DNA from: Gemmatimonadaceae bacterium | GTDB taxonomy: Bacteria > Gemmatimonadota > Gemmatimonadetes > Gemmatimonadales > Gemmatimonadaceae | Length of the DNA: 64,000 bases | Assembly: GCA_036273715.1 (NCBI GenBank) | Contig: DASUHB010000069.1 | Location: 124,001 to 188,000, forward strand | Direction: 5' to 3' | Shown here: positions 16,774 through 62,979 of the stretch, piece after piece | Numbering within the stretch: position 1 is the stretch's first letter | Layout of the letters: each line of letters begins with the position of its first letter | The notes under the pieces: generated by a model | Told to the model about the DNA's origin: nothing | What the model saw: only the letters and a program-made list of their open reading frames with translations | The model's database searches: none | Position numbers and translations under genes: made by a program

Positions 16774-17106
16774 TCAGCTCGACTCGATGATTCGGCCCAC
16801 CGCGAGGGCGTACCGCTTCCAGGTCTCCGATTCAGAGCGGAGTCGCGCGCGGCCGCGCGTTGTGAGCGAGTAGTACTTCGCTCGGCGCTTGTTGTCGGAG
16901 AGTCCCCACTCCGACGTGATGGCACCGCTTTCCTCGAGTCGGTGGAGCGCCTTGTAGAGCGCGGCATCCACGATCACGAGGTGGCCGCCGCCGCGGTGCT
17001 CGATCCATTCGGCGATGGCGTAGCCGTGCATGGCGCCCCAGGAGAGGGTCTTGAGCACCAGCACATCGAGCGTGCCGTGCAGGAGGTCACTGGCGTCGCG
17101 AGGCAT
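16774..17106 (-). CDS. PadR-family transcriptional regulator paired with ADOP copy 2
   Basis: 110 residues: DLLHGTLDVLVLKTLSWGAMHGYAIAEWIE (DNA-binding N-terminus), DAALYKALHRLEESGAITSEWGLSDNKRRAKYYSLTTRGRARL (recognition helix and wing) and a C-terminal helix. The ATG at 17106 agrees with relatives. It almost touches the permease gene downstream and probably controls the pair. The upstream region lacks the TGTAGAC motif seen before PadR copies 1 and 4. It contains ACTATCGTTG, which might be the -10 region, but I cannot assign a promoter with confidence. Confidence 0.92.
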   Translation of the reverse strand: MPRDASDLLHGTLDVLVLKTLSWGAMHGYAIAEWIEHRGGGHLVIVDAALYKALHRLEESGAITSEWGLSDNKRRAKYYSLTTRGRARLRSESETWKRYALAVGRIIESS

Positions 17107-17202: not shown

Positions 17203-17251
17203 AGCATCAGAGAGTTTTTGCCTACTTTGTAGGCAAAAACTCCGTGATGCT
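17203..17251. repeat. AT-rich perfect palindrome, copy 1 of a two-copy element
   Basis: Perfect 14-base arms GAGTTTTTGCCTAC (17212-17225) and GTAGGCAAAAACTC (17229-17242) enclose TTT. Outer 7-base arms AGCATCA (17203-17209) and TGATGCT (17245-17251) continue the symmetry. The core AGAGTTTTTGCCTACTTTGT recurs at 61281-61328. Poly-T lies 5' and poly-A 3' of the stem, the wrong order for an intrinsic terminator on either strand, so a protein-binding site or a REP/MITE-like element is more likely. Confidence 0.7.
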
Positions 17252-17431: not shown

Positions 17432-18496
<1,065 letters not shown>

Positions 18497-52620: not shown

Positions 52621-54020
52621 TCCTCGACACGAGAGCGAGCATCATCGCTGTCGCCTACATCCTCGCCGCAGTCCTCCTCATTTTCGGTCTCCGCAAACTC
52701 AGTTCCCCCGCCACCGCACGCAACGGCAACCTGCTGGCGGCGGCCGGCGTGTTCCTGGCGCTGGCGATCACGCTACTCGACCGGTCGATCGTCTCGTACT
52801 GGGAGCTGGCGTTGGGCATCGTCATTGGCGGCGCGATCGGCATCATCGCGGCGCGCAAAGTCCAGATGACCGCCATGCCGCAGATGGTCGGCCTGCTCAA
52901 TGGGTTGGGCGGCGGCACGGCGGCGCTCGTCTCGCTGTCCGAGTATCTCCGCCTGTCGTTCGCGGCGCCGGTCCGCGGCGGCGAAGCGGTGAGCGTCGTG
53001 TTAGGCACCGCGATCGGATCGGTGTCGTTCACCGGCAGCGTCGTCGCCTTCGCCAAGCTGCAGGAGCTGCTCTCGAGCAAGCCGTTCCAGTTCCCGCTCC
53101 AGCGCGCCTTCAACGGACTGCTCCTCCTCGTCATCCTCGCACTCGGCGCCACGATGGTCGTCGGCGGCGACACCGCGAGCACGCCCTGGATCGTGTTCGC
53201 CGTGGCGCTCGCGTTGGGCGCGCTGCTCGTGCTGCCGATCGGCGGCGGGGACATGCCCGTCGTCATCGCGACCCTGAACGCGCTCACCGGCATCGCGGCG
53301 GCGTTTACCGGACTGGTGCTGCACAACCAGATCCTCGTCGTCGCCGGCATCCTGGTGGGCGCATCGGGCACCTTGCTCACGCTGCTCATGGGCAAGGCGA
53401 TGAACCGCTCGTTAGGCAACGTCTTCTTCGGCGGGTTCGGGGCGGCGACGGCAGCCGCGGGCGGGCCGGCCGGCAGCGCGGTCGCCAAGACCGTTCGGCA
53501 GACGAGCGCCGAGGATACGGCGATCGCGCTGGCGTACGCGCGCAAAGTGGTGATCGTGCCCGGCTACGGCCTCGCCGTGGCCGAGGGGCAGCACGCGGTC
53601 CGGGAGCTGGCGCAGGAGCTCGAGCGCCGCGGCGTCGACGTCAAATTTGCGATTCATCCGGTGGCCGGCCGCATGCCCGGCCACATGAACGTACTCCTGG
53701 CCGAAGCGAACATCCCATACGACGAGCTGGTCGAGATGGACCAGATCAACGGCGACTTCGACAGCACCGACGTGGTGCTCGTCGTGGGCGCGAACGACGT
53801 GGTCAATCCCGCCGCGCGCGATGATCCGTCGAGTCCGATTTATGGGATGCCCATTCTCGACGTCGACAAAGCGCGCAACGTGATCGTGCTCAAGCGCAGC
53901 ATGGGCACCGGCTTCGCGGGCATCGACAACGCGCTGTTTTATCGCGACCGCACGCGGATGCTGTTCGGCGACGCGAAGAAGTCGCTGACGTCGTTAGTCG
54001 AGGCGCTCAAGACGGTCTAA
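52617..54020 (+). CDS. pntB: NAD(P) transhydrogenase subunit beta
   Basis: 467 residues, GTG start. The N-terminal ~260 residues form the TM domain II (VQMTAMPQMVGLLNGLGGGTAALVS is the signature). The C-terminal domain III binds NADP(H): VIVPGYGLAVAEGQHAVRELAQEL, the HPVAGRMPGHMNVLLAEANIPYDEL loop, VVLVVGANDVVNPAA, and KRSMGTGFAGIDNALFY. With PntAA/PntAB it makes NADPH from NADH using the proton gradient. The last 69 bases of the gene are duplicated at 55975-56041. Confidence 0.96.
   Translation: MILDTRASIIAVAYILAAVLLIFGLRKLSSPATARNGNLLAAAGVFLALAITLLDRSIVSYWELALGIVIGGAIGIIAARKVQMTAMPQMVGLLNGLGGGTAALVSLSEYLRLSFAAPVRGGEAVSVVLGTAIGSVSFTGSVVAFAKLQELLSSKPFQFPLQRAFNGLLLLVILALGATMVVGGDTASTPWIVFAVALALGALLVLPIGGGDMPVVIATLNALTGIAAAFTGLVLHNQILVVAGILVGASGTLLTLLMGKAMNRSLGNVFFGGFGAATAAAGGPAGSAVAKTVRQTSAEDTAIALAYARKVVIVPGYGLAVAEGQHAVRELAQELERRGVDVKFAIHPVAGRMPGHMNVLLAEANIPYDELVEMDQINGDFDSTDVVLVVGANDVVNPAARDDPSSPIYGMPILDVDKARNVIVLKRSMGTGFAGIDNALFYRDRTRMLFGDAKKSLTSLVEALKTV
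53947..54015 (+). repeat. pntB 3' end, left copy of a 69-base direct repeat
   Basis: This segment encodes the RTRMLFGDAKKSLTSLVEAL end of PntB. It recurs at 55975-56041 with one substitution and a 2-base deletion, 2028 bases apart and in the same orientation. The DNA between (small ORF, lipoproteins A and B) is bracketed by the two copies. Confidence 0.9.
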
Positions 54021-54222: not shown

Positions 54223-54876
54223 CTAGTTTGCCTTGGCGATCAGATGGATACCGTCGACGACCTGCGGCGGCATGATCACGTCCATGGTTGCTCCCGGAAG
54301 AGTAAGCTCTCCGGACATGGCCATCATCACCATCTGGCGCCGGCAATCGACGCCAAACGGCACGTCCACGTCCGGCGGGACCGGCGGCTGAAGGGCGGTG
54401 CAGGCTCCGGACGGTCTCGAAGGCGTCACCGTGCTGACTAACGATGCCGGCGAGGCGCCAAAGATGGTGTCCTTCGTGACCAGTCCCAGGTGCGGCCCGT
54501 GATAGTCCTCGATCACCCAGATCGTATCCGCCGTGCGGGACCATGCAGACACCTGATAGACGGAGTCGAACCCTCTCCCTCCGACGTCCTGCACCGTATA
54601 GGCGGCAATCATCGGATAGGTCACGGCAGTTCCATTTACGGTCAAGTGAACGGTGCCGACCTCCGCGCCGAGCACCAGTTCCTGCTGCATCCCGAGGACG
54701 ACGCTGGAGTAGTCGGCGTTCCCATGCGCGCGCGCGGAGTCGAGCAGTGCGAGCGCGGCGGCTCGCGTCGCGCTCGGCGGTGCCGTCGCTGATTCGCTCG
54801 AGCAAGCGAGCACGGCAGTGGCTGCGGCGACGGCCAAGAGGCCTCGGGACAGGCGCGGCGACAGTGATCGGTGCAT
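54223..54876 (-). CDS. AGIR-type lipoprotein family, member A (divergent)
   Basis: ATG at 54876 (MHRSLSPRLSRGLLAVAAATAVLAC), lipobox cysteine at residue 25. The mature part begins SSESATAPPSATRAAALALLDSA and keeps the family features DSVYQVSAWSR, CTALQPPVPPDVDVPFGVDC (C-x18-C) and the tail MPPQVVDGIHLIAKAN in place of LPxQxVAGIRLE. It is the most divergent full-length member. A hairpin of two GTTAGGC motifs follows its stop. Predicted exported and membrane-anchored; function unknown. Confidence 0.7.
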   Translation of the reverse strand: MHRSLSPRLSRGLLAVAAATAVLACSSESATAPPSATRAAALALLDSARAHGNADYSSVVLGMQQELVLGAEVGTVHLTVNGTAVTYPMIAAYTVQDVGGRGFDSVYQVSAWSRTADTIWVIEDYHGPHLGLVTKDTIFGASPASLVSTVTPSRPSGACTALQPPVPPDVDVPFGVDCRRQMVMMAMSGELTLPGATMDVIMPPQVVDGIHLIAKAN

Positions 54877-55047
54877 CGCGGCTACGCTCCAGATCGTGGT
54901 CGAGGGTTCGTGACATCCGAACTGCTTCCGCACTCCGGCGTTCGCGGAAGCTACGCGATAAACCCGCCGCGCGCTTCCGCGGTTCCCGTCGTTAGCCCGT
55001 AAGGCGAACGGTCACAATTGATCGGACAAAAGCGCGATGCGGAATCG

Positions 55048-55701
55048 TCAGTCAGTCGCCGTCGTCTCGAGACGAATGCCCGCGACCTGTTGGTTAGGCA
55101 ACGAGATGCTGTCGCCGCCGGCGCCCACCGGCACCGTGAAGGACGCCTGTACGGTTTGGAGCGTGCAACCGATCGGAGTGGGCGCATCGAGATCGGGCGG
55201 CGCCTGCCCGAGTAGCGATTTGCACGCGGTGCCGGGCGCGCCGGGCGTGATGGCGACTGTTCCGCCAATCGTACCTACCGATGCGGCGTGATCCGAGACG
55301 AGCGAGAAGACCGCGGTGCTCGTTGCGTTGAACACGACGACGCTGTCCGGCGCGTTACCCTCGTAGCCGATCACCGTGTACTGGGAATCGACGGGCTGAC
55401 CGTTGACGTCGTCCACCACCAGCGCGGCGACCATCGAGAATCGGCCGGTCACGCTACCGTTCTTGATGAGGCCGGTGCCGAGTGGTGCGCCTTCGGCCAG
55501 GATCTGCGCGATGCTCAGGAACGCGTTGGCGCGCTCGGGGTCGGCGGTGGTACCGCGCAGGGAGTCGAAGCGCGACAGGGTGCGCAGGTTCTGTGACGTG
55601 CTCGGACCAGTGGACGAGTCGCTGGAGCACGCGGCGGTGACGGCGATCGCCGCGAGCACGGACGCGGCGCAGCAACCACGAAGCAGACGAACGATGCACA
55701 T
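55048..55701 (-). CDS. AGIR-type lipoprotein family, member B
   Basis: ATG at 55701, signal RGCCAASVLAAIAVTAAC with lipobox cysteine at about residue 25, then SSDSSTGPSTSQNLRTLSRFDSLRG. Family blocks: FLSIAQILAEGAPLGTG, DDVNGQPVDSQYTVIGYEGN, C-x18-C (CKSLLGQAPPDLDAPTPIGC), and the C-terminus LPNQQVAGIRLETTATD. Closely similar to members E and G. No transporter or enzyme is adjacent. The coding density and motif content suggest a functional gene. Confidence 0.8.
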   Translation of the reverse strand: MCIVRLLRGCCAASVLAAIAVTAACSSDSSTGPSTSQNLRTLSRFDSLRGTTADPERANAFLSIAQILAEGAPLGTGLIKNGSVTGRFSMVAALVVDDVNGQPVDSQYTVIGYEGNAPDSVVVFNATSTAVFSLVSDHAASVGTIGGTVAITPGAPGTACKSLLGQAPPDLDAPTPIGCTLQTVQASFTVPVGAGGDSISLPNQQVAGIRLETTATD

Positions 55702-55974
55702 GGGACCCTCCGCTCATGGGGTGGTTGTGCTTAACGCATCGCGGCAGTGGCGCGCGAGCGCCGGCATGCCTCCACCATAGAGCGGGGGACGGGCTCCGTG
55801 CTAAAGGATGAGCGAAAGCAAATCGGATTCTGACACGCCGCTCACAAACGATCCCCTCGCGCGACGCGGCAAACGCGTGTCATGTCCTCGTGGCGATCGC
55901 AGACGTCCGTTAGCCGGCGCTCTCCGATGAGTTGGATGCCCGGCGACGTCGACGAATGGGCCACGGCAGTTGTC

Positions 55975-56041
55975 ACCGCACGCGCATGCTGTTCGGCGAC
56001 GCGAAGAAGTCGCTGACGTCGTTAGTCGGTGCTCAAGACGG
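55975..56041 (+). repeat. Duplicated pntB 3' end fragment, right copy
   Basis: ACCGCACGCG...CTCAAGACGG repeats the final segment of pntB (53947-54015) with one substitution and a 2-base deletion that would break the frame. It is not preceded by any other part of pntB. It ends 3-9 bases inside the 3' end of the lipoprotein relic C. See the finding on duplication. Confidence 0.9.
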
Positions 56042-56540
56042 CGTAGCGGTCGCGGCGGCACAGGCCACGCGCTCACGTAGCTGCTCGAGCGCGGACTCGT
56101 TGAATTCGTACCGGATCGCGGCGAGCGTTTGCTGGGATAAGGAGAAGTTCACGCTGACCCCGGTGCTGTCGGTTAATTTCCCGGTCGCCAAGGCCGAGAC
56201 CCGCTCGCGAGCGCACGACACCTCGGGCGGGATGAATGTACTCGGCGGCAGCACCGAGACAAACGACCTGCACCAGCCGTTAGGCGCCGACGGCGTTCCC
56301 AACCAGCGTTCCATGCCCGACCGGTGTCCCTTCACTGAGCCGGTCGGCCAGATTGATGAGCTGGCCCGCGTGAAGGGCTTGTGACGTCCTGCTCAACGCC
56401 TGAAAGCGCGCAATGAGCTGCGCGTTGTTGGCCGCGGTCGGTCCGGTGGCAGAATCAGAGCACGCCGCGGCCACGGCGACAGTTGCAGCGCTAACAACGA
56501 CTGTACGCCAGCGGCCCGCATGCATGCGTGTCATTCGCAT
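56033..56540 (-). pseudogene. AGIR-type lipoprotein family, member C, frameshifted
   Basis: The ATG at 56540 gives MRMTRMHAGRWRTVVVSAATVAVAAAC, CSDSATGPTAANNAQLIARFQALS and SEGTPVGHGTLVGNAVGA, ending at a TAA (56280) that lies in a GCCTAAC motif. In the next frame the family continues: NGWCRSFVSVLPPSTFIPPEVSC (the C-x18-C), then VNFSLSQQTLAAIRYEFNES and a basic tail ending at 56033. The middle beta domain is missing between the two halves. I read it as a pseudogene created by deletion and frameshift. Confidence 0.75.
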
Positions 56541-56577
56541 TCTCCGTACGGCTAAGCGGCCGGTCTGCCGGACCTGG

Positions 56578-57114
56578 TCACAGCAAGTTGGACTCGACGC
56601 GAATACCCGCTGCCCTCTGCGCCGGCATGGCAAACGACGCCGGCGGGTCGCCGTTGTCGTTCAATGACGCGGCGGCAGAGATGGAAATCGACAAGGTTGG
56701 CGCCGTGACCGACTCACCGGAGCAGCCCACGATCACAGCCCCGGCGGCAAGGCCCGCGAACGCGCCGCTGTTGCACATCGAATAGATGGTACGCATTGAG
56801 GATTCTGAGGCGGCAGGCGTCTGACAAGTTAGGCGGGCGTTACCGCTCAGCGCAACCCGGTGGATCAATACAGGAACGACAGCGACTCCGCCTCCGATAT
56901 GTCGCCCGGTAGCGAGCTGCGCCGCCATGGCACGCAGCTGGTTGGAGTGGACCGCTGGCGCTGTCTTGCTGAGTAAGGCGAAACGCGCAATGAGTTGCGC
57001 GTTGCTGGCGACGGTTGGGCCGGTCGCCGAGCTACACGAAGACGCCACCGCAGCGATCGCCGCGACGATGCATCCGATGGCATGTCGTCCACGACTGTTG
57101 GGCGCTGTCAGCAT
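56578..57114 (-). CDS. AGIR-type lipoprotein family, member D (abnormal)
   Basis: I take ATG 57114 (MLTAPNSRGRHAIGCIVAAIAAVASSC) as the start; a longer frame upstream has no signal. The first part shows SSATGPTVASNAQLIARFALLSK. The middle beta domain is short and divergent. A later internal ATG (56796) opens a second signal-like stretch (YSMCNSGAFAGLAAGAVIVGC) overlying the family's C-x16-C position. The end keeps FAMPAQRAAGIRVESNLL. It may be a fusion of two members or a fast-diverging copy. Confidence 0.5.
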   Translation of the reverse strand: MLTAPNSRGRHAIGCIVAAIAAVASSCSSATGPTVASNAQLIARFALLSKTAPAVHSNQLRAMAAQLATGRHIGGGVAVVPVLIHRVALSGNARLTCQTPAASESSMRTIYSMCNSGAFAGLAAGAVIVGCSGESVTAPTLSISISAAASLNDNGDPPASFAMPAQRAAGIRVESNLL

Positions 57115-57357
57115 GGCGGTGGAGCGCCCTGATGTCGACGCGACCGCCCGCAACCAATGACTTGTGCGGCTGACGTATGCAAAGCAATCGCGTGATGCCC
57201 GTAAACCGAACACCTGCTGCGCATCGCATCCTGTGGCGAGAGACGAACTCGTTGCATCCTCCAGCGACGACCTGTCCTCCGACGACGTCACGACTCGACG
57301 CTTCGCGGCGCGAAACGAAGAATCGAGCAAACGGACAAGATGCCCAACGGCGATGAC

Positions 57358-58020
57358 TCAGGGAGCCGGTGGCTGGATTTCCACCTCGAGCCGGATGCCG
57401 GCCACCGACTGGCTCGGAAGCGCGAACGTGCTGCCGACCACCGATTCGGCGTCGAACGCGACGGTTGTGCTCTGACGTTGGCACGTGACCGGCGTGGGCG
57501 CCGAGACGTCCGGCGGCGTCACCGAGAGAAAGGACACGCAGGCGGCACCCGGCGCGCCTAACGTAAGCGTCGGCGCGCCCTGTCCGATGAATTCGCCCGA
57601 GCCGGCCGGCGTACCGACGAGCACGGCCACGAATCCCGCGCTCGCGTTGAATACGACGATGCTGTCCGTTCCGTCGCCTTTCCATGCCGCCACGCTGTAC
57701 TGCGAATCCACGGGAGCGCCCTGCTCATCCAGCACCTGGAGCTCGGCCGTCATGTGATATTGCTCGGCGACGCCGTTCACCATCACGGTTCCGGTGGCAA
57801 CGGGAGCGCCCTCGGCCAGAATCTGCGCGATGTCCAACATGGCGCTCGATCGGCTTTCATCGGCTGTGGCGTTATGCAGGGAGTCGAATCGAAGAATGAG
57901 CTGCGCGTTCTGATTCGTCGTGGGTCCGGTGACCGAATCGCTGGAACAGGCCGCTAAGGCGAGAGTGGCGATAGCGAGCACAACAGTCGAACGCATCCGG
58001 AGCGAACGATAGGTCGTCAT
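57358..58020 (-). CDS. AGIR-type lipoprotein family, member E
   Basis: Best-preserved member, 220 residues. Signal STVVLAIATLALAAC with lipobox cysteine at about residue 24, SSDSVTGPTTNQNAQLILRFDSLHN, LDIAQILAEGAPVATGTV, QGAPVDSQYSVAAWKGDG, CVSFLSVTPPDVSAPTPVTC and LPSQSVAGIRLEVEIQPPAP. An alternative ATG is eight codons downstream. About 90 percent of its layout coincides with G at 40036, so duplication is likely. Role unknown, exported. Confidence 0.85.
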   Translation of the reverse strand: MTTYRSLRMRSTVVLAIATLALAACSSDSVTGPTTNQNAQLILRFDSLHNATADESRSSAMLDIAQILAEGAPVATGTVMVNGVAEQYHMTAELQVLDEQGAPVDSQYSVAAWKGDGTDSIVVFNASAGFVAVLVGTPAGSGEFIGQGAPTLTLGAPGAACVSFLSVTPPDVSAPTPVTCQRQSTTVAFDAESVVGSTFALPSQSVAGIRLEVEIQPPAP

Positions 58021-58195
58021 TGGGCACCTCCCGAGGGCGGGCGAGCCGAGCCGTTGGGCGCCGAGTCCTACCGCACGGTCGTACCCGGCGCAGCAGTCAG
58101 CTTGGAAATCCGCCGCACGGGCGGGCGGTTCCCCGCTTCGGCATCGGCGTTATTCGGCACCTGTCTAACGTGGTCAACCGGCACGGGGGTCCAAC

Positions 58196-58460
58196 CTACC
58201 GGATGGCCGACGCGCCTAACGCTCCCTGAGCCGGGTGGTACGGTGTTGAGCTGGATGCGGATTCCGGACACGGACTGTGTGGGCAGTGCGACGGTCGACG
58301 TATTGTCGTCGTCCAGCAGAGGCGAGAACGCATCCGTCGAACGCTCGACGCGGGTGCCGGCGGTGTCGACAGCGAATCAGCGCGTGCAGCGGCGCCGGCC
58401 GCAACCGCGAGTCCGAGCGCCCAACACGTACGGCGCAACGCACCAGGCGGCACCGAGCAA
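58196..58460 (-). pseudogene. AGIR-type lipoprotein family, remnant F
   Basis: A signal-like N-terminus (ALRRTCWALGLAVAAGAAARA) lies in one frame and the family C-terminus (DDDNTSTVALPTQSVSGIRI) in another, with the central domains deleted. After the tail the frame runs on into unrelated sequence. The C-terminal motif SVSGIRIQLN is a clear family hallmark, so this is a decayed copy. Confidence 0.6.
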
Positions 58461-58563
58461 GCGCGGCGCCCGGCCCCGGCCGGAATCTTCGAAGGGTATT
58501 TGATCGGACAAAAGGCCAGGCGCCGCCGTGTCTAACTGTGGCCTTGCCCGAGGGGCCGACCGG

Positions 58564-59553
58564 TCAATACAGTAGCGAGAGCAGCTCCGTCTCGGAAACG
58601 CCGCTCACGAAGGTGCCCGCCTCGCACCGCCCCAGCGCCGCGGCGAGGTCGTCGCGGCGATAGCGGACGCCAGTTAGACAGCGCTCGAGATCGGCGATCT
58701 CGCGGCTCGAGAAGAAATCGCCGAAGAATTTCGCCGTCTTGATGAACCCGTCGTCGACGAACAGGCGGATGTCGACTTCCCCGCTCGGAAAGCGACGTGT
58801 CCGCTGCAGGTTGAAGGGCGGCGACTCGCCGTAGTTCCAGTCCCAGCTCCGGTACTTCGCGTTGGCCAGCTCTTCGACGCGCGCGCGATCGTCGGGCGAG
58901 AATTCGTGGGTCGGCACAGGACCGCCGCCGGGGAACAGGTGCGCGAGCAGCGCGGCCCGAAAATCGGCCATCGGCAGCGGCGCCCCGAGAAACTCGCGGA
59001 TGTTCGCGACCCTGCTCCGCACCGACTGAATGCCCTTGGACTCCACCTTGCCGGGCTTGGGCTTGAGCGCGCGCGTGACGTCGTCGAGGTTCGAGTCGAG
59101 CAGCAGCGTCCCATGGCTGAACATGCGGTCGCCCCGCACCACCTGCGCGTTGCCCGATACCTTGCGCCCTTCCACGACGATGTCGTTCCGGCCGGTGCGC
59201 TCCGCCGCCACGCCTAACTCGCGCAGGGCCTCGACGACCGGACCGGTGAACTCGGCGTAGTTGTTGAATCGCTGCGGGGTGTAGCGCGTGATGAAGCTGA
59301 AGCTGAGGTTGCCAAGATCGTGGTACACGGCGCCGCCGCCGGAAATGCGGCGCACCACCGTGATGTCGTGCTGGTCCACGAAATCGGCGTCGATCTCTTC
59401 GATGGTATTCTGGTGCTTGCCGATGATGATCGACGGCCGATTGACGTAGAACAGCAGGTAGCTGTCCGAGAGGTCGAGGGTGAGCAGCGCGTACTCTTCG
59501 AGCGCCAAATTGAGCGTCGCATCGGTCGTGCCGCCGTTGTCGAGAAACCGCAT
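58564..59553 (-). CDS. lplA: Lipoate-protein ligase A
   Basis: Attaches lipoic acid to lipoyl domains using ATP. The biotin/lipoate ligase signature RRISGGGAVYHDLGNLSFS (68-86) and the catalytic lysine motif GRNDIVVEGRKVSGNAQ (K131) are intact. The C-terminal accessory domain (SWDWNYGESPPFNLQRTRRFPSGEVDIRLFVDDGFIKTAKFFGDFF...LTGVRYRRDDL) is present. Length 329 is normal. It follows hemQ by six bases, in a three-gene operon with the nucleotidyltransferase-like gene. The ATG at 59553 is the natural start. Confidence 0.94.
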   Translation of the reverse strand: MRFLDNGGTTDATLNLALEEYALLTLDLSDSYLLFYVNRPSIIIGKHQNTIEEIDADFVDQHDITVVRRISGGGAVYHDLGNLSFSFITRYTPQRFNNYAEFTGPVVEALRELGVAAERTGRNDIVVEGRKVSGNAQVVRGDRMFSHGTLLLDSNLDDVTRALKPKPGKVESKGIQSVRSRVANIREFLGAPLPMADFRAALLAHLFPGGGPVPTHEFSPDDRARVEELANAKYRSWDWNYGESPPFNLQRTRRFPSGEVDIRLFVDDGFIKTAKFFGDFFSSREIADLERCLTGVRYRRDDLAAALGRCEAGTFVSGVSETELLSLLY

Positions 59554-59559
59554 GCGTCG

Positions 59560-60348
59560 TTAGGCGGGCCACTCGCCGTCGGCGGTCAACCGGCCGACGA
59601 AAAACTCGCCGAACTCCGCGTAGCGCGCGGACGTCTCGTCGAAGCGCATGTCGGTGACGAGCTTCTTGAAGTCGAGCGGGTCGCGCGCAAACAGCGTGAC
59701 GCCCCACTCCCACGCGTCGAGGCCGATCGCGCCCGTGATGACCTGCACCACCCGGCCCGCGTACCGGCGCCCGACCATCCCGTGTGCCGTCATGAGCCGG
59801 CTGCGCTCCTCGAGCGATAGCTCGTACCAATTCTGACCCGGCTGCCTGCGTTTCGACATGGGATAGAAGCAGACGTACGGCATCTCGGGCATGCGTTGTG
59901 GATACAGCCGCCGCCGCACGTGTGCAGTCGCAAGTTCGGCTGCCGATCGTTGGGCGAGAGCGTCGCGGTACGCGTCGTCGCCCACCGCACCGCCCCGCTC
60001 TTCTGCTTCCTTGGCCAGGCGGGCCGACAGGTGGTAGAGCCCCGCCTCGGTCACACTCAAGAAGGAGTAGACCAGGCTCGACCGCTCGACGACCGCCTCG
60101 CTGCCTAACCGGCGCTGCACCCGGCCGATGTCATCGAGGGTCGGCCGGAAGTGGACGAGCATCACGTCGGCGCGCGAGCCAACGAGCGATGCGGCCGCCG
60201 TCCAGCCGCCCTCGGCCGGACACGCCAAGTCGGCCAGCGCGCGCGACATGCCGTCCCGGGCCGCCACGTCCGCGCTCAGCGACGCCGGCACCCGGTAGAT
60301 CTGATGAAGGGCGTACCAGCCCTCGAGCGTTTCGGGCGCGTAATTCAC
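59560..60348 (-). CDS. hemQ: Coproheme decarboxylase (chlorite-dismutase family, HemQ)
   Basis: Last step of the coproporphyrin-dependent heme pathway: decarboxylates coproheme to heme b. The start is GTG at 60348. The coproheme-binding half contains Y162 of CFYPMSKRRQPGQNWYELS, H189 in RLMTAHGMVGRRYAG (axial ligand) and the signature GAIGLDAWEWGVTLFARDP followed by DMRFDETSARYAEFGEFFVGRL. The N-terminal half is the noncatalytic ferredoxin-like repeat. It lies 4 bases after the nucleotidyltransferase-like gene. No other heme genes are nearby. Confidence 0.94.
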   Translation of the reverse strand: MNYAPETLEGWYALHQIYRVPASLSADVAARDGMSRALADLACPAEGGWTAAASLVGSRADVMLVHFRPTLDDIGRVQRRLGSEAVVERSSLVYSFLSVTEAGLYHLSARLAKEAEERGGAVGDDAYRDALAQRSAAELATAHVRRRLYPQRMPEMPYVCFYPMSKRRQPGQNWYELSLEERSRLMTAHGMVGRRYAGRVVQVITGAIGLDAWEWGVTLFARDPLDFKKLVTDMRFDETSARYAEFGEFFVGRLTADGEWPA

Positions 60349-60352
60349 GCTT

Positions 60353-61285
60353 TCAATCTACGCGACGGAGGACCACTTGGGCGGCCTCGAGCTCAAGGAT
60401 CGCGGGCAGCGGCACCCGGCGACGGCTCGCGCGCAACGCCGACGCCAGCGACTCCAACCGGAGCACGCGAGGTTGCGCATGGCCCAGCTCGAGGATGTCG
60501 GATCCCGCGGCCAACGCGGCGAATTCCGCATCCGAGGCGCGACGAAAGACGACGGCACCGCCGTAGATCGCCAGCGCGAGCACGGGCGCATCGTGGACGA
60601 TTTGCTCGTCGGTGACAAACGGGTACTCGTCCCGAACCCCAAGGGGCCGCGCGTTCCAGTGTGCGGCAAGCGCTGCGACGCGCGCGATACCATCGCCGGC
60701 GTAGCAAACTTCGAGGCGGGGCTGATTGCGTGGTACGCCGCGCAGGACGGCAGCGACGTCGCCGATCACGACATGGGGCAATCCACTGATCACCAGATCT
60801 CGCAGGACCGCGCGGACCTCTTCGCCTAACGCTCGGGCCCGGATGGCCGGCGACGCGAGCGCGAGCCCGCGCAGGAGACGCGTGTCGAGGCCCACTGCGG
60901 TGGCATGGGAAAGAATGGCGGGCCGGCTTCGCGCTCGGTGTCGCACGTACCACGGCGATGGTCCGCGCCGGTACTTCCCGTCGAGCATGGCGGCCGAGAG
61001 CCGTAGGCTGCAGCGGGTGTGATATCGGTCGAGGTCGACCAGGAGGCGCAGGCCGGCGTCGCGGGACAGCGGGATCGCGCCCGAATTCGCCTGCAGCGCT
61101 TTGGTCGCAAGCGCGGCGGCGCGAGAGATCCTCATGCGGGAACAGCGCACCATTTCGAAGACCAGGCCGAGCCAGCGGGCTTCGCCTTCCGTGCGGTCGA
61201 ACCGGCGGCCCAGAAGGCGGCCCGCGTTATCGACCCATTTTTCGGTGGCGCCGGTGGCGCACGCGAACTGTCTTTTCGAGAGCAT
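60353..61285 (-). CDS. Nucleotidyltransferase-fold protein with degenerate active site, 310 aa
   Basis: Residues 1-40 look like a helix-turn-helix (MLSKRQFACATGATEKWVDNAGRLLG). Residues 170-200, HVVIGDVAAVLRGVPRNQPRLEVCY, fit the MNT/AbiEii motif (hxGGxAxxLxGxxRxTxDhDh), but the second Gly is Asp and the catalytic Asp-x-Asp is Leu-x-Val, so catalysis is doubtful. The C-terminus has YGGAVVFRRASDAEFAALAAG and LPAILELEAAQVVLRRVD. It precedes hemQ by four bases and shares its operon. The start lies in the arm of the palindromic element at 61281. Possibly a regulator or antitoxin-like protein. Confidence 0.55.
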   Translation of the reverse strand: MLSKRQFACATGATEKWVDNAGRLLGRRFDRTEGEARWLGLVFEMVRCSRMRISRAAALATKALQANSGAIPLSRDAGLRLLVDLDRYHTRCSLRLSAAMLDGKYRRGPSPWYVRHRARSRPAILSHATAVGLDTRLLRGLALASPAIRARALGEEVRAVLRDLVISGLPHVVIGDVAAVLRGVPRNQPRLEVCYAGDGIARVAALAAHWNARPLGVRDEYPFVTDEQIVHDAPVLALAIYGGAVVFRRASDAEFAALAAGSDILELGHAQPRVLRLESLASALRASRRRVPLPAILELEAAQVVLRRVD

Positions 61286-61328
61286 CGGAGAGTTTTTGCC
61301 TACTTTGTAGGCGATAATTATCCGATGC
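61281..61328. repeat. AT-rich palindromic element, copy 2
   Basis: Outer arms GCATCGGA (61282-61289) and TCCGATGC (61321-61328); inner GCCTAC (61298-61303), TTT, GTAGGC (61307-61312). The stretch GAGAGTTTTTGCCTACTTTG is shared exactly with copy 1 at 17203. A second small palindrome GATAATTATC (61313-61322) follows. The ATG of the nucleotidyltransferase-like gene lies inside the left outer arm, so here the element overlaps a promoter or start region. Confidence 0.75.
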
Positions 61329-61395
61329 CGCGCGGGAAGACGTGCGAACGTTTCGGCGCACGGAGCATCATTCCCACGCCGCCGCTCGCACGCTG

Positions 61396-62979
61396 CTACC
61401 GCGCCCAGCGACTCAATTTTTTTTTCGGTGCGCTCGGACGCACGTGCTCAGTCGTGATGCCGATCGAGCCCAGCGCGCGCGCTGCGGCAGCCGCACGCAA
61501 ATTCCACTCGTACCAGTGTGTGCGGGACGGCAGGCGTCCGCGGTAAGTGGCCACGAGACCGCTATACAGCGAATCGCGATCCGCTTGGGGCAACCGCGGC
61601 AAGGCGCTCACAATTTCCGGAACCGCGTTCGGCGACAGACCCAACAGGTACTGGGTATCGAGTCGGGAGAATCTGGTTGCCGTGTATGCGTCGATGTTCT
61701 TGCGCGCGATCCAGGCCTCGTGGTTCCAGAGGCAGAGCCCGATCACCGCGGCGGCACCCATCAACGCGACCCGGCGCGCCAACCGCTTCGCGTCGATCGA
61801 GGTCCAGGTCTCGATGCCCAGCGCCATCAACGCGAGCGACACGATGATCATGTACACGCGGGCGTACAAGCGCGCCGCCGTGTAGCCGTAGGCTGATTCG
61901 TACAAGACGACGCGATGGTACGCGGAGTCGAGCAGGAGCTGCACGAGAAAAATCAGCACGAGGCCCGCCACGCGCGTTCTCGCTTCGGCGTCGCTCCGTG
62001 CCGCGTGGTGATCGAGGAACACGATCAGGAGGGTCGCCACGGTCGCGGCAACGGTGATCTCGCCGAAGCCCTTGCGCGCATATTCGGCGTAGGTCACGCC
62101 GCTACCGGCCAAGCCGGCAACGTTGCCGAAGAAGTACGAAACCTGCAGTCCGAGGAAGAGCGCGAACAGCGCGGCCACCGATGCGAGCACGACGAATCGC
62201 TCGGTCTCTCCCAGACCGCGGCGCGATTCGGCGGCCCGCGCGGGCGGGTTGCTCGAGCGGCGGATGGAAATCCCGTACGCGCCCACGGTGAGCGCTCCCA
62301 GGCCCAGGAAGAACACGAGCCGCGGAACGAGCATGCCGTCTTTGCCTAACGCGATGAGCTCGTCGCGCAATCGAGCCAGCACCGGGTCGGCGCCGGAGAG
62401 CAGCAGTGCGAGCGCGCCGACCACCGGAATCGCCAACAAGACGCCGCGCACGCGCGCCTGGGCCCGTTCGCTTCCCGATCCGGGTAGACTCGCGAGCTCG
62501 GCGAGCCTGAGCGCGGCCTCGCGAATCGAACGGGCGGCGCCGGCGACCGGCGTCACGACAAACGCGATGGGGCCGATCGATCGGAGCGGCACCCCTTCGG
62601 CGAGCGCGACGCCGAGGGCGAGCAGCACGGCAACGCCCATCATGATGATGGGAGCAAAGTCGAAATCGGCGGTCACCGCCATGCAGGACGCAAGCGCGCA
62701 CGCAACCGCGAGCGCGACGCCGACCGGCAGGCCGATGCGCCCGCGCGCGCGATGCACCACCCAGGCCAGCCCGAGCGCCGCCGCATACGTCCAGAGCGCC
62801 CAGTTGAGCCCGGGCGTCGCGTCGAAGCACGTCCACGTGCCTAACGCAGCGACGAGCGTGGCCGGCGGCCAGATGATCGATGCGGTGCGCGCGAGGGCGG
62901 CGACACCGGGGGTCGGCCCGGGCCGGCCGGCAGCAGACGGCATGGGAGAACGCGTTTCCGGAACCGCGGACGCTGGCAT
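61396..62979 (-). CDS. DUF4173-like polytopic membrane protein, 527 aa
   Basis: About ten TM helices. The most telling block is YFFGNVAGLAGSGVTYAEYARKGFGEITVAATVATLLI (about residues 300-340), typical of DUF4173 (LYFGG...GxTYAEYARxGFFEL). A basic C-terminus (THWYEWNLRAAAAARALG...PKKKLSRWAR) follows the last helices. ATG 62979 was chosen because it follows the uppS stop by 7 bases; a shorter start at 62943 is possible. Same strand as uppS, likely cotranscribed. Function unknown. Confidence 0.7.
   Translation of the reverse strand: MPASAVPETRSPMPSAAGRPGPTPGVAALARTASIIWPPATLVAALGTWTCFDATPGLNWALWTYAAALGLAWVVHRARGRIGLPVGVALAVACALASCMAVTADFDFAPIIMMGVAVLLALGVALAEGVPLRSIGPIAFVVTPVAGAARSIREAALRLAELASLPGSGSERAQARVRGVLLAIPVVGALALLLSGADPVLARLRDELIALGKDGMLVPRLVFFLGLGALTVGAYGISIRRSSNPPARAAESRRGLGETERFVVLASVAALFALFLGLQVSYFFGNVAGLAGSGVTYAEYARKGFGEITVAATVATLLIVFLDHHAARSDAEARTRVAGLVLIFLVQLLLDSAYHRVVLYESAYGYTAARLYARVYMIIVSLALMALGIETWTSIDAKRLARRVALMGAAAVIGLCLWNHEAWIARKNIDAYTATRFSRLDTQYLLGLSPNAVPEIVSALPRLPQADRDSLYSGLVATYRGRLPSRTHWYEWNLRAAAAARALGSIGITTEHVRPSAPKKKLSRWAR

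What the first reader, a model, noticed from the sequence alone, without database searches (positions are those of the whole stretch)
58564..61285. Degenerate nucleotidyltransferase-like protein in an operon with HemQ and LplA
The protein has an N-terminal helix-turn-helix and an MNT-type motif without the catalytic Asp pair. It is coupled to hemQ (4 bases) and lplA (6 bases). A cofactor-linked role is unexpected for this fold, usually toxin-antitoxin or RNA-modifying. It might be a heme- or lipoate-responsive regulator.
Basis: partly seen in the sequence, partly recalled or inferred. Interest (0 to 1): 0.6.

Follow-up and report, generated by a model that had tools for sequence, protein, structure and literature searches.

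The report
Dead toxin-like fusion acting as repressor
The gene in front of the heme gene hemQ encodes a fused, enzymatically dead relative of a two-gene regulator-plus-nucleotidyltransferase pair; it probably works as a DNA-binding repressor whose palindromic target, a single-copy site in the relatives tested, has spread to more than a dozen places in this bacterium's genome.

Summary
In detail: an intact 310-aa gene (X, 60353-61285, minus strand) precedes hemQ by 4 bp and lplA follows hemQ by 6 bp. X pairs a helix-turn-helix with a nucleotidyltransferase (NTase) domain that lacks its catalytic residues.

X is the fused form of a two-gene operon found patchily across Gemmatimonadota: gene A (predicted MerR/CvkR-like DNA-binding protein) and gene B (catalytically intact AbiEii/MenT/DUF2204-like NTase). 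Most split relatives carry a palindrome just before the start codon. In one, G173 (another genus), the identical 13-bp core CCTACAAAGTAGG occurs once in the genome, exactly there. X is therefore most likely a self-regulating repressor built from a toxin-antitoxin-like pair whose enzyme half is dead but still under purifying selection.

The hemQ link is local: X lies between DUF4153 and hemQ in four sister species; two congeners lack it. No heme or lipoate theme emerged.

Unexpectedly, those four species carry 6-16 copies each of an extended 45-bp palindrome containing this core; all copies examined are intergenic and many sit at orthologous positions. It may be an expanded regulon or a REP-like repeat; which one is not settled. 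DNA binding was not tested.

The parts
60353..61285 (-). Protein X (310 aa): fused MerR/CvkR-like DNA-binding domain and catalytically dead AbiEii/MenT-like nucleotidyltransferase domain
   Evidence: dN/dS about 0.35
60983..61285 (-). Residues 1-101 of X: predicted MerR-type wHTH plus dimerisation-like segment
   Evidence: VIA-align to CvkR 7xn2, Z 9.8, rmsd 2.5, 100 residues; gene A of a split relative alone gives Z 9.6
60356..60835 (-). Residues 151-310 of X: NTase fold with D-x-D replaced by R190-L-E192 and motif III/IV Lys/Asp replaced by L284/P292
61283..61327 (.). 45-bp imperfect palindrome CATCGGATAATTATCGCCTACAAAGTAGGCAAAAACTCTCCGATG (minus strand); its last three bases are the ATG of X; predicted operator
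61298..61312 (.). Operator core GCCTACAAAGTAGGC; its 13-bp core CCTACAAAGTAGG occurs once in G173, directly upstream of the split gene A
59560..60348 (-). hemQ (coproheme decarboxylase, chlorite dismutase-like), 4 bp after X
58564..59553 (-). lplA (lipoate-protein ligase), 6 bp after hemQ
17205..17249 (.). Second copy of the 45-bp palindrome in the window, intergenic, about 121 bp (centre to start codon) upstream of a PadR-family regulator gene (16774-17106, -)

Best explanation
X is a single-chain transcriptional autoregulator that arose by head-to-tail fusion of the two genes of a toxin-antitoxin-like operon: gene A, a MerR/CvkR-like DNA-binding protein, and gene B, an AbiEii/MenT-like nucleotidyltransferase. 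The NTase half has lost all its catalytic residues but was kept as a folded domain. X most likely binds, as a dimer, the palindrome whose arm contains its own start codon, and so limits transcription of its own operon. Because X lies between DUF4153 and hemQ, hemQ and lplA are now in the operon it controls. Shown by computation: the homology and fusion, the loss of catalytic residues, the predicted folds, the conserved palindrome at the gene's start across the family, the local insertion (or loss in the sisters), and the spread of that palindrome in X-bearing species. Inferred: DNA binding, dimerisation, repression, control of hemQ-lplA, and action at the dispersed copies. The ancestor's toxicity is inferred from its relatives only.
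For: Split A+B operons, with B directly downstream of or overlapping A, occur across the phylum, and their B proteins keep the GG..HGS.R.T.D.D motif. Tree: X's clade (100/99) groups with the split genes of G173/G172 (93/83). A palindrome lies at the start of gene A in most lineages. Pattern CTANNNNNTAGNNNTATTT matches a handful of places in 26 genomes, and 8 of those genomes have the match directly upstream of gene A. CCTACAAAGTAGG occurs once in G173, directly upstream of gene A. The g7 operator TGTAGTTAGTATYTGAA occurs once in each of four genomes, each time upstream of the gene. Fold matches. dN/dS is 0.31 for the A part and 0.36 for the B part. AbiEii D67/D69 (even to Glu), R63, K173, R180 and D192 mutants are non-toxic (PMC3985639); MenT1 D41A, K137A and D152A are non-toxic (PMC10435456). 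AbiEi binds inverted repeats in its own promoter and autorepresses (PMC7319586).
Against: No binding, repression or dimerisation was measured. The CvkR match (Z 9.8) comes from a second look at Foldseek candidates and is only moderately above typical best scores; by sequence there is at best a chance-level MerR hit (E 0.41). The scan found no sigma-70-like promoter at X, although that consensus may not fit this phylum. Palindrome and X share a single evolutionary event, so co-occurrence in four sister genomes is one observation, not four. Most genomes are incomplete MAGs.
Confidence: 0.75

Rival explanations
1. X is a dedicated heme- or lipoate-responsive regulator of hemQ and lplA, with the dead NTase pocket as ligand sensor.
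For: X-hemQ spacing is +4, +4, -4 and -4 bp in the four species; a catalytically dead NTase domain under purifying selection could have become a nucleotide or small-molecule sensor; MerR-type proteins often sense ligands (general knowledge).
Against: hemQ lacks X in two congeners and at the other hemQ loci examined; homologues of X are not near hemQ; dispersed sites flank unrelated genes (tatA, cupin, YCII, PadR, class II aldolase, MFS, glyoxalase).
Confidence: 0.1
2. The dispersed 45-bp palindromes are REP-like structural or mobile repeats that spread from X's operator region (perhaps with X's help) and are not regulatory sites. This rivals the regulon extension, not the autoregulator itself.
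For: Arms of each copy match each other beyond the consensus (327/416 paired positions against 290 +/- 6.3 in shuffles, max 314); strong hairpins; two copies lie between convergent genes; orthologous copies can have the loop flipped (L110/L119); in G099 one copy is followed by about 40 nt resembling X's first codons.
Against: Low copy number (6-16); many copies at orthologous positions, three position groups in all four species; the core is identical to the single operator of a split relative in another genus.
Confidence: 0.3
3. X is a decaying toxin-antitoxin remnant that merely hitchhikes in front of hemQ.
For: Its NTase is dead and it evolves faster than hemQ and lplA (dN/dS 0.35 against about 0.10-0.15).
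Against: The frame is open in four species (in G100 the gene is cut over two contigs); dN/dS is well below 1 in both halves; the fold is predicted confidently; the operator is conserved.
Confidence: 0.08
4. X remains an active nucleotidyltransferase with unusual catalytic residues (for example tRNA modification).
For: Fold retained.
Against: All four catalytic positions are replaced and the GG motif is altered to GD; Asp-to-Glu changes at these positions abolish AbiEii toxicity (PMC3985639).
Confidence: 0.03

Closest known systems
AbiE type IV toxin-antitoxin system (AbiEi-AbiEii, DUF1814)
   Same: The split relatives are bicistronic operons of a DNA-binding regulator and a pol-beta-type NTase, with inverted repeats at the promoter; B proteins match AbiEii, DUF2204 and DUF6036 profiles.
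   Different: Gene A has no sequence match to an antitoxin family and its predicted fold is MerR/CvkR-like, not AbiEi's wHTH plus COG5340 domain; in X the two genes are fused and the NTase is dead.
MenAT (MenT1/MenA1 and MenT3) of M. tuberculosis
   Same: NTase domain fold (MenT1 Z about 11).
   Different: MenA1 is a 68-aa protein without an apparent DNA-binding domain (PMC10435456); the catalytic D41/K137/D152 equivalents are absent in X.
CvkR, MerR-type repressor of type V-K CRISPR-associated transposons
   Same: Fold of X residues 1-101 and of gene A (Z 9.8 and 9.6); binds a 15-nt palindrome (AnnACATnATGTnnT) at promoters it represses (PMC9938897).
   Different: 9-10% identity in the structural alignment; different palindrome; no transposon context seen at X; X carries a C-terminal NTase domain.
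MtvT/MtvA, inactive toxin-antitoxin system of P. aeruginosa plasmid pPAD8
   Same: A TA-like module without detectable toxicity that acts as a regulator (PMC11826091, abstract).
   Different: Type II, two separate proteins, plasmid-borne.
REP / RAYT repeats (general knowledge)
   Same: Dispersed intergenic palindromes with compensating arm differences.
   Different: X is not a Y1 transposase; copy number is low; positions are largely orthologous between species.

Membership tests
AbiEii / DUF2204 / DUF6036 nucleotidyltransferases | Pol-beta NTase fold | tested here: met
   X residues 151-309: TM1012 Z 12.2, MenT1 Z about 11
AbiEii / DUF2204 / DUF6036 nucleotidyltransferases | Catalytic motifs hG[G/S]...DhD plus Lys/Asp of motifs III-IV | tested here: not met
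   X has G175-D176, R190-L-E192, L284, P292; split gene B proteins have the motif
AbiEii / DUF2204 / DUF6036 nucleotidyltransferases | Pfam profile match | tested here: not met
   X: no Pfam hit at E<=1. Split B proteins: DUF6036 13/13, DUF2204 12/13, AbiEii 11/13 at E<=0.1
Type IV toxin-antitoxin (AbiE-like) | Bicistronic regulator-NTase operon | tested here: not met
   X is one fused gene; its split relatives are bicistronic
Type IV toxin-antitoxin (AbiE-like) | Inverted repeats at own promoter | tested here: met
   Palindrome at 61283-61327 and at gene A starts of relatives
Type IV toxin-antitoxin (AbiE-like) | Toxicity of the NTase neutralised by partner | not testable with these tools
   Needs expression assays
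MerR-type regulators (CvkR-like) | N-terminal MerR wHTH fold | tested here: met
   Predicted structures of X and of gene A: CvkR Z 9.8 and 9.6, CueR about 6.9; prediction only
MerR-type regulators (CvkR-like) | Sequence match to MerR profiles | tested here: not met
   No Pfam hit; PDB profile search gives a MerR chain at E 0.41 only
MerR-type regulators (CvkR-like) | Dimeric binding of a palindrome | not testable with these tools
   Palindrome present; binding not measured
hemQ-associated heme regulators | Conserved linkage to hemQ | tested here: not met
   4 of 6 species of the genus only; absent at other hemQ loci examined in the family

The most novel reading that the evidence does not exclude
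A toxin-antitoxin-like HTH-NTase pair was fused, disarmed and domesticated into a multi-target regulator: in one genus its operator, a single-copy site in relatives, expanded into 6-16 conserved intergenic 45-bp palindromes that form an X regulon (including X-hemQ-lplA), possibly by copying of the operator itself.
Probability: 0.4. Interest if true: 0.75.

Novelty: new variant of a known kind. Interest (0 to 1): 0.6.

Why it matters
It gives a traceable case of how a toxin-antitoxin-like pair can become a host regulator: split and enzymatically intact in relatives, fused and dead here, with an operator that goes from single-copy to many sites. The intermediate states exist in sequenced relatives, so the order of events and the gain of targets can be tested directly. 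It also describes a phylum-wide family of MerR/CvkR-like partners of AbiEii/MenT-type NTases that none of the protein-family libraries searched here names.

Tried and rejected
Chance or artefact: rejected (orthologues without stops, dN/dS, confident fold). A general hemQ partner: rejected. An MNT/HEPN antitoxin: no support; the B family matches DUF2204/DUF6036/AbiEii instead. A known RNA element upstream: no Rfam hit in 58000-62000. An intrinsic terminator or sigma-70 promoter at the palindrome: no convincing match on X's strand. Gene A on plasmids or phages: no match. Dispersed operators in relatives: looked for and not found; where the patterns match at all, the operators of the split relatives and of the g7 genomes are single-copy. 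A sequence search of PDB with X alone gave only chance hits. An X copy near the two 45-bp-like sites of G098 was not found. A flank search for empty sites of the dispersed palindrome was prepared but not run; orthology of flanking proteins was used instead.

Full report
What is there. The three minus-strand genes at 58564-61285 are as described: X (60353-61285, 310 aa), hemQ 4 bp later, lplA 6 bp after that. The genome (G000, 4.3 Mb) groups with Gemmatimonadaceae MAGs. X has one copy in it and matches no Pfam, NCBIfam or PADLOC family.

X is a fusion of a two-gene module. A search of 179 family genomes found relatives in 42; in many of them the two halves of X are two adjacent genes. Gene A (~170 aa) matches X 1-150 and gene B (~160 aa) matches X 151-310, often with overlapping start and stop codons. 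A profile of gene A found it in 52 of 298 genomes of the phylum, patchily, including other families and classes. In the full-length loci checked outside the family, gene B was always directly downstream (one further locus was cut by a contig end). A tree of the A domain places the four X proteins together (100/99), grouped with the split genes of G173 and G172 (93/83). A separate clade in genus g7 holds its own fused forms and forms with a truncated NTase, so single-gene derivatives with a damaged NTase apparently arose at least twice.

What the halves are. Split gene B proteins match DUF6036 (13/13), DUF2204 (12/13) and AbiEii (11/13) at E<=0.1 and hit MenT1 in the PDB by profile (E 0.001). 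They keep GG..HGS.R.T.D.D. AlphaFold2 of X gave pLDDT 90; residues 151-309 align to TM1012 (Z 12.2) and MenT1 (Z about 11), and residues 1-101 to CvkR, a MerR-type repressor (Z 9.8, rmsd 2.5, 100 residues). Gene A of a split relative, modelled alone, again gave CvkR first (Z 9.6) followed by CueR. By sequence gene A has only a chance-level MerR hit, so this rests on predicted structure.

The NTase of X is dead. Aligned with gene B, the catalytic D-x-D is R190-L-E192 in X, GG is G-D, and the C-terminal Lys and Asp are L284 and P292. In AbiEii, changes of these Asp residues even to Glu abolish toxicity (PMC3985639); in MenT1, D41A, K137A and D152A abolish it (PMC10435456). Yet the domain is kept: dN/dS between G000 and G100 is 0.31 for residues 31-150 and 0.36 for 151-310, against 0.27 for DUF4153 and 0.13-0.15 for lplA and hemQ.

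The hemQ link is local. In G000, G100, G099 and G097, X lies between DUF4153 (with uppS beyond it) and hemQ, coupled by +4 or -4 bp. In G098 and G096, of the same genus, DUF4153 is followed directly by hemQ. At other hemQ loci in the family neither A nor B profiles were found, and the relatives of X are not near hemQ. So X was inserted in this clade, or lost by its nearest sisters, and hemQ and lplA now sit downstream of it.

The operator. Upstream of X lies a palindrome, GCCTACAAAGTAGGC (61298-61312), within a 45-bp imperfect palindrome whose last bases are X's ATG (61283-61327). Most split relatives have a palindrome in the same place, e.g. AAATATATCTAGTCGCTAGATATATTT. The pattern CTANNNNNTAGNNNTATTT matched only a handful of places in 26 genomes with relatives, and in 8 genomes the match lies directly upstream of gene A. 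CCTACAAAGTAGG occurs once in G173, at the start of its gene A, and in none of 12 other genomes tested apart from G000. In four g7 genomes the corresponding sequence also occurs once each, at the gene. This argues strongly that the palindrome is the binding site of this protein family. By analogy AbiEi binds inverted repeats in its promoter and represses itself (PMC7319586), and CvkR binds a palindrome (PMC9938897). Binding by X is inferred, not shown.

The unexpected part. Exact GCCTACAAAGTAGGC was found in 4 of 179 family genomes: exactly the four with X, with the reversed control at zero in all. The extended 45-bp pattern with up to 3 mismatches gave 16, 10, 9 and 6 copies in G000, G099, G100 and G097, two in G098, none in G096 or in seven genomes of other genera, and none in the controls. 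Of 39 copies examined none lay inside a predicted gene; 19 lay between tandem, 9 between divergent and 2 between convergent genes, with the rest near contig ends. Grouping by flanking proteins showed that most G000 copies have a counterpart at the same place in another species; X itself, a PD40 gene and a YCII gene have one in all four. Neighbours (tatA, cupin, PadR regulator, class II aldolase, MFS, glyoxalase and others) show no heme or lipoate theme. The four species are sisters, so the co-occurrence of X and the copies is one event.

Regulon or repeat? Orthologous retention and the shared core favour functional X sites. Against a plain regulon: the two arms of each copy match each other more than shuffled arms do (327 of 416 against 290 +/- 6.3), copies fold into strong hairpins, one orthologous pair (L110/L119) has the loop flipped, and one G099 copy (L108) is followed by about 40 nt resembling the start of X, as if the operator region had been copied. 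Both readings can be partly true.

Verdict. The best reading is a disarmed, fused derivative of a regulator-NTase pair that controls itself and, through its place, hemQ and lplA, with a possible larger set of targets.

Noticed in passing
55811-56041: Short duplicates of two gene ends: 55975-56041 repeats the 3' end of the transhydrogenase-like gene (53947-54015, 94%), and 55811-55922 repeats the 3' end of lplA (58574-58686, 69%), in the same convergent arrangement. This suggests an old duplication of a junction between those genes.
   Followed up: partly
54223-58020: Array of related small putative lipoproteins on the minus strand ('ACSSDS.TGPT..N..LI.RFDSL...'), at least four copies, some apparently degraded.
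   Followed up: no
L108 (G099:C5, near 17940-17984): A copy of the palindrome is followed by about 40 nt that read like the start of X (MSSKRHFATAAGST against MLSKRQFASAVGAT), without a full X gene: a partial copy of X's 5' end.
   Followed up: partly
L193 (G098:C89:11091-11135): G098, which has no X at hemQ, still carries one near-perfect 45-bp-type palindrome (CATCCAATAGATCTTACCTACCAGGTAGGCAACATCTATCGGATG) and one weaker copy; no X homologue nearby. It may have lost X.
   Followed up: partly
L023, L024, L028, L029, L030 (genus g7): A parallel line of gene A proteins followed by a truncated NTase remnant lacking the active-site motif, with a single operator copy per genome where tested.
   Followed up: partly
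61283-61327: There is no visible Shine-Dalgarno between the palindrome and the ATG of X, and the layout is the same in split relatives; this hints at leaderless translation, as reported for cvkR (PMC9938897).
   Followed up: no
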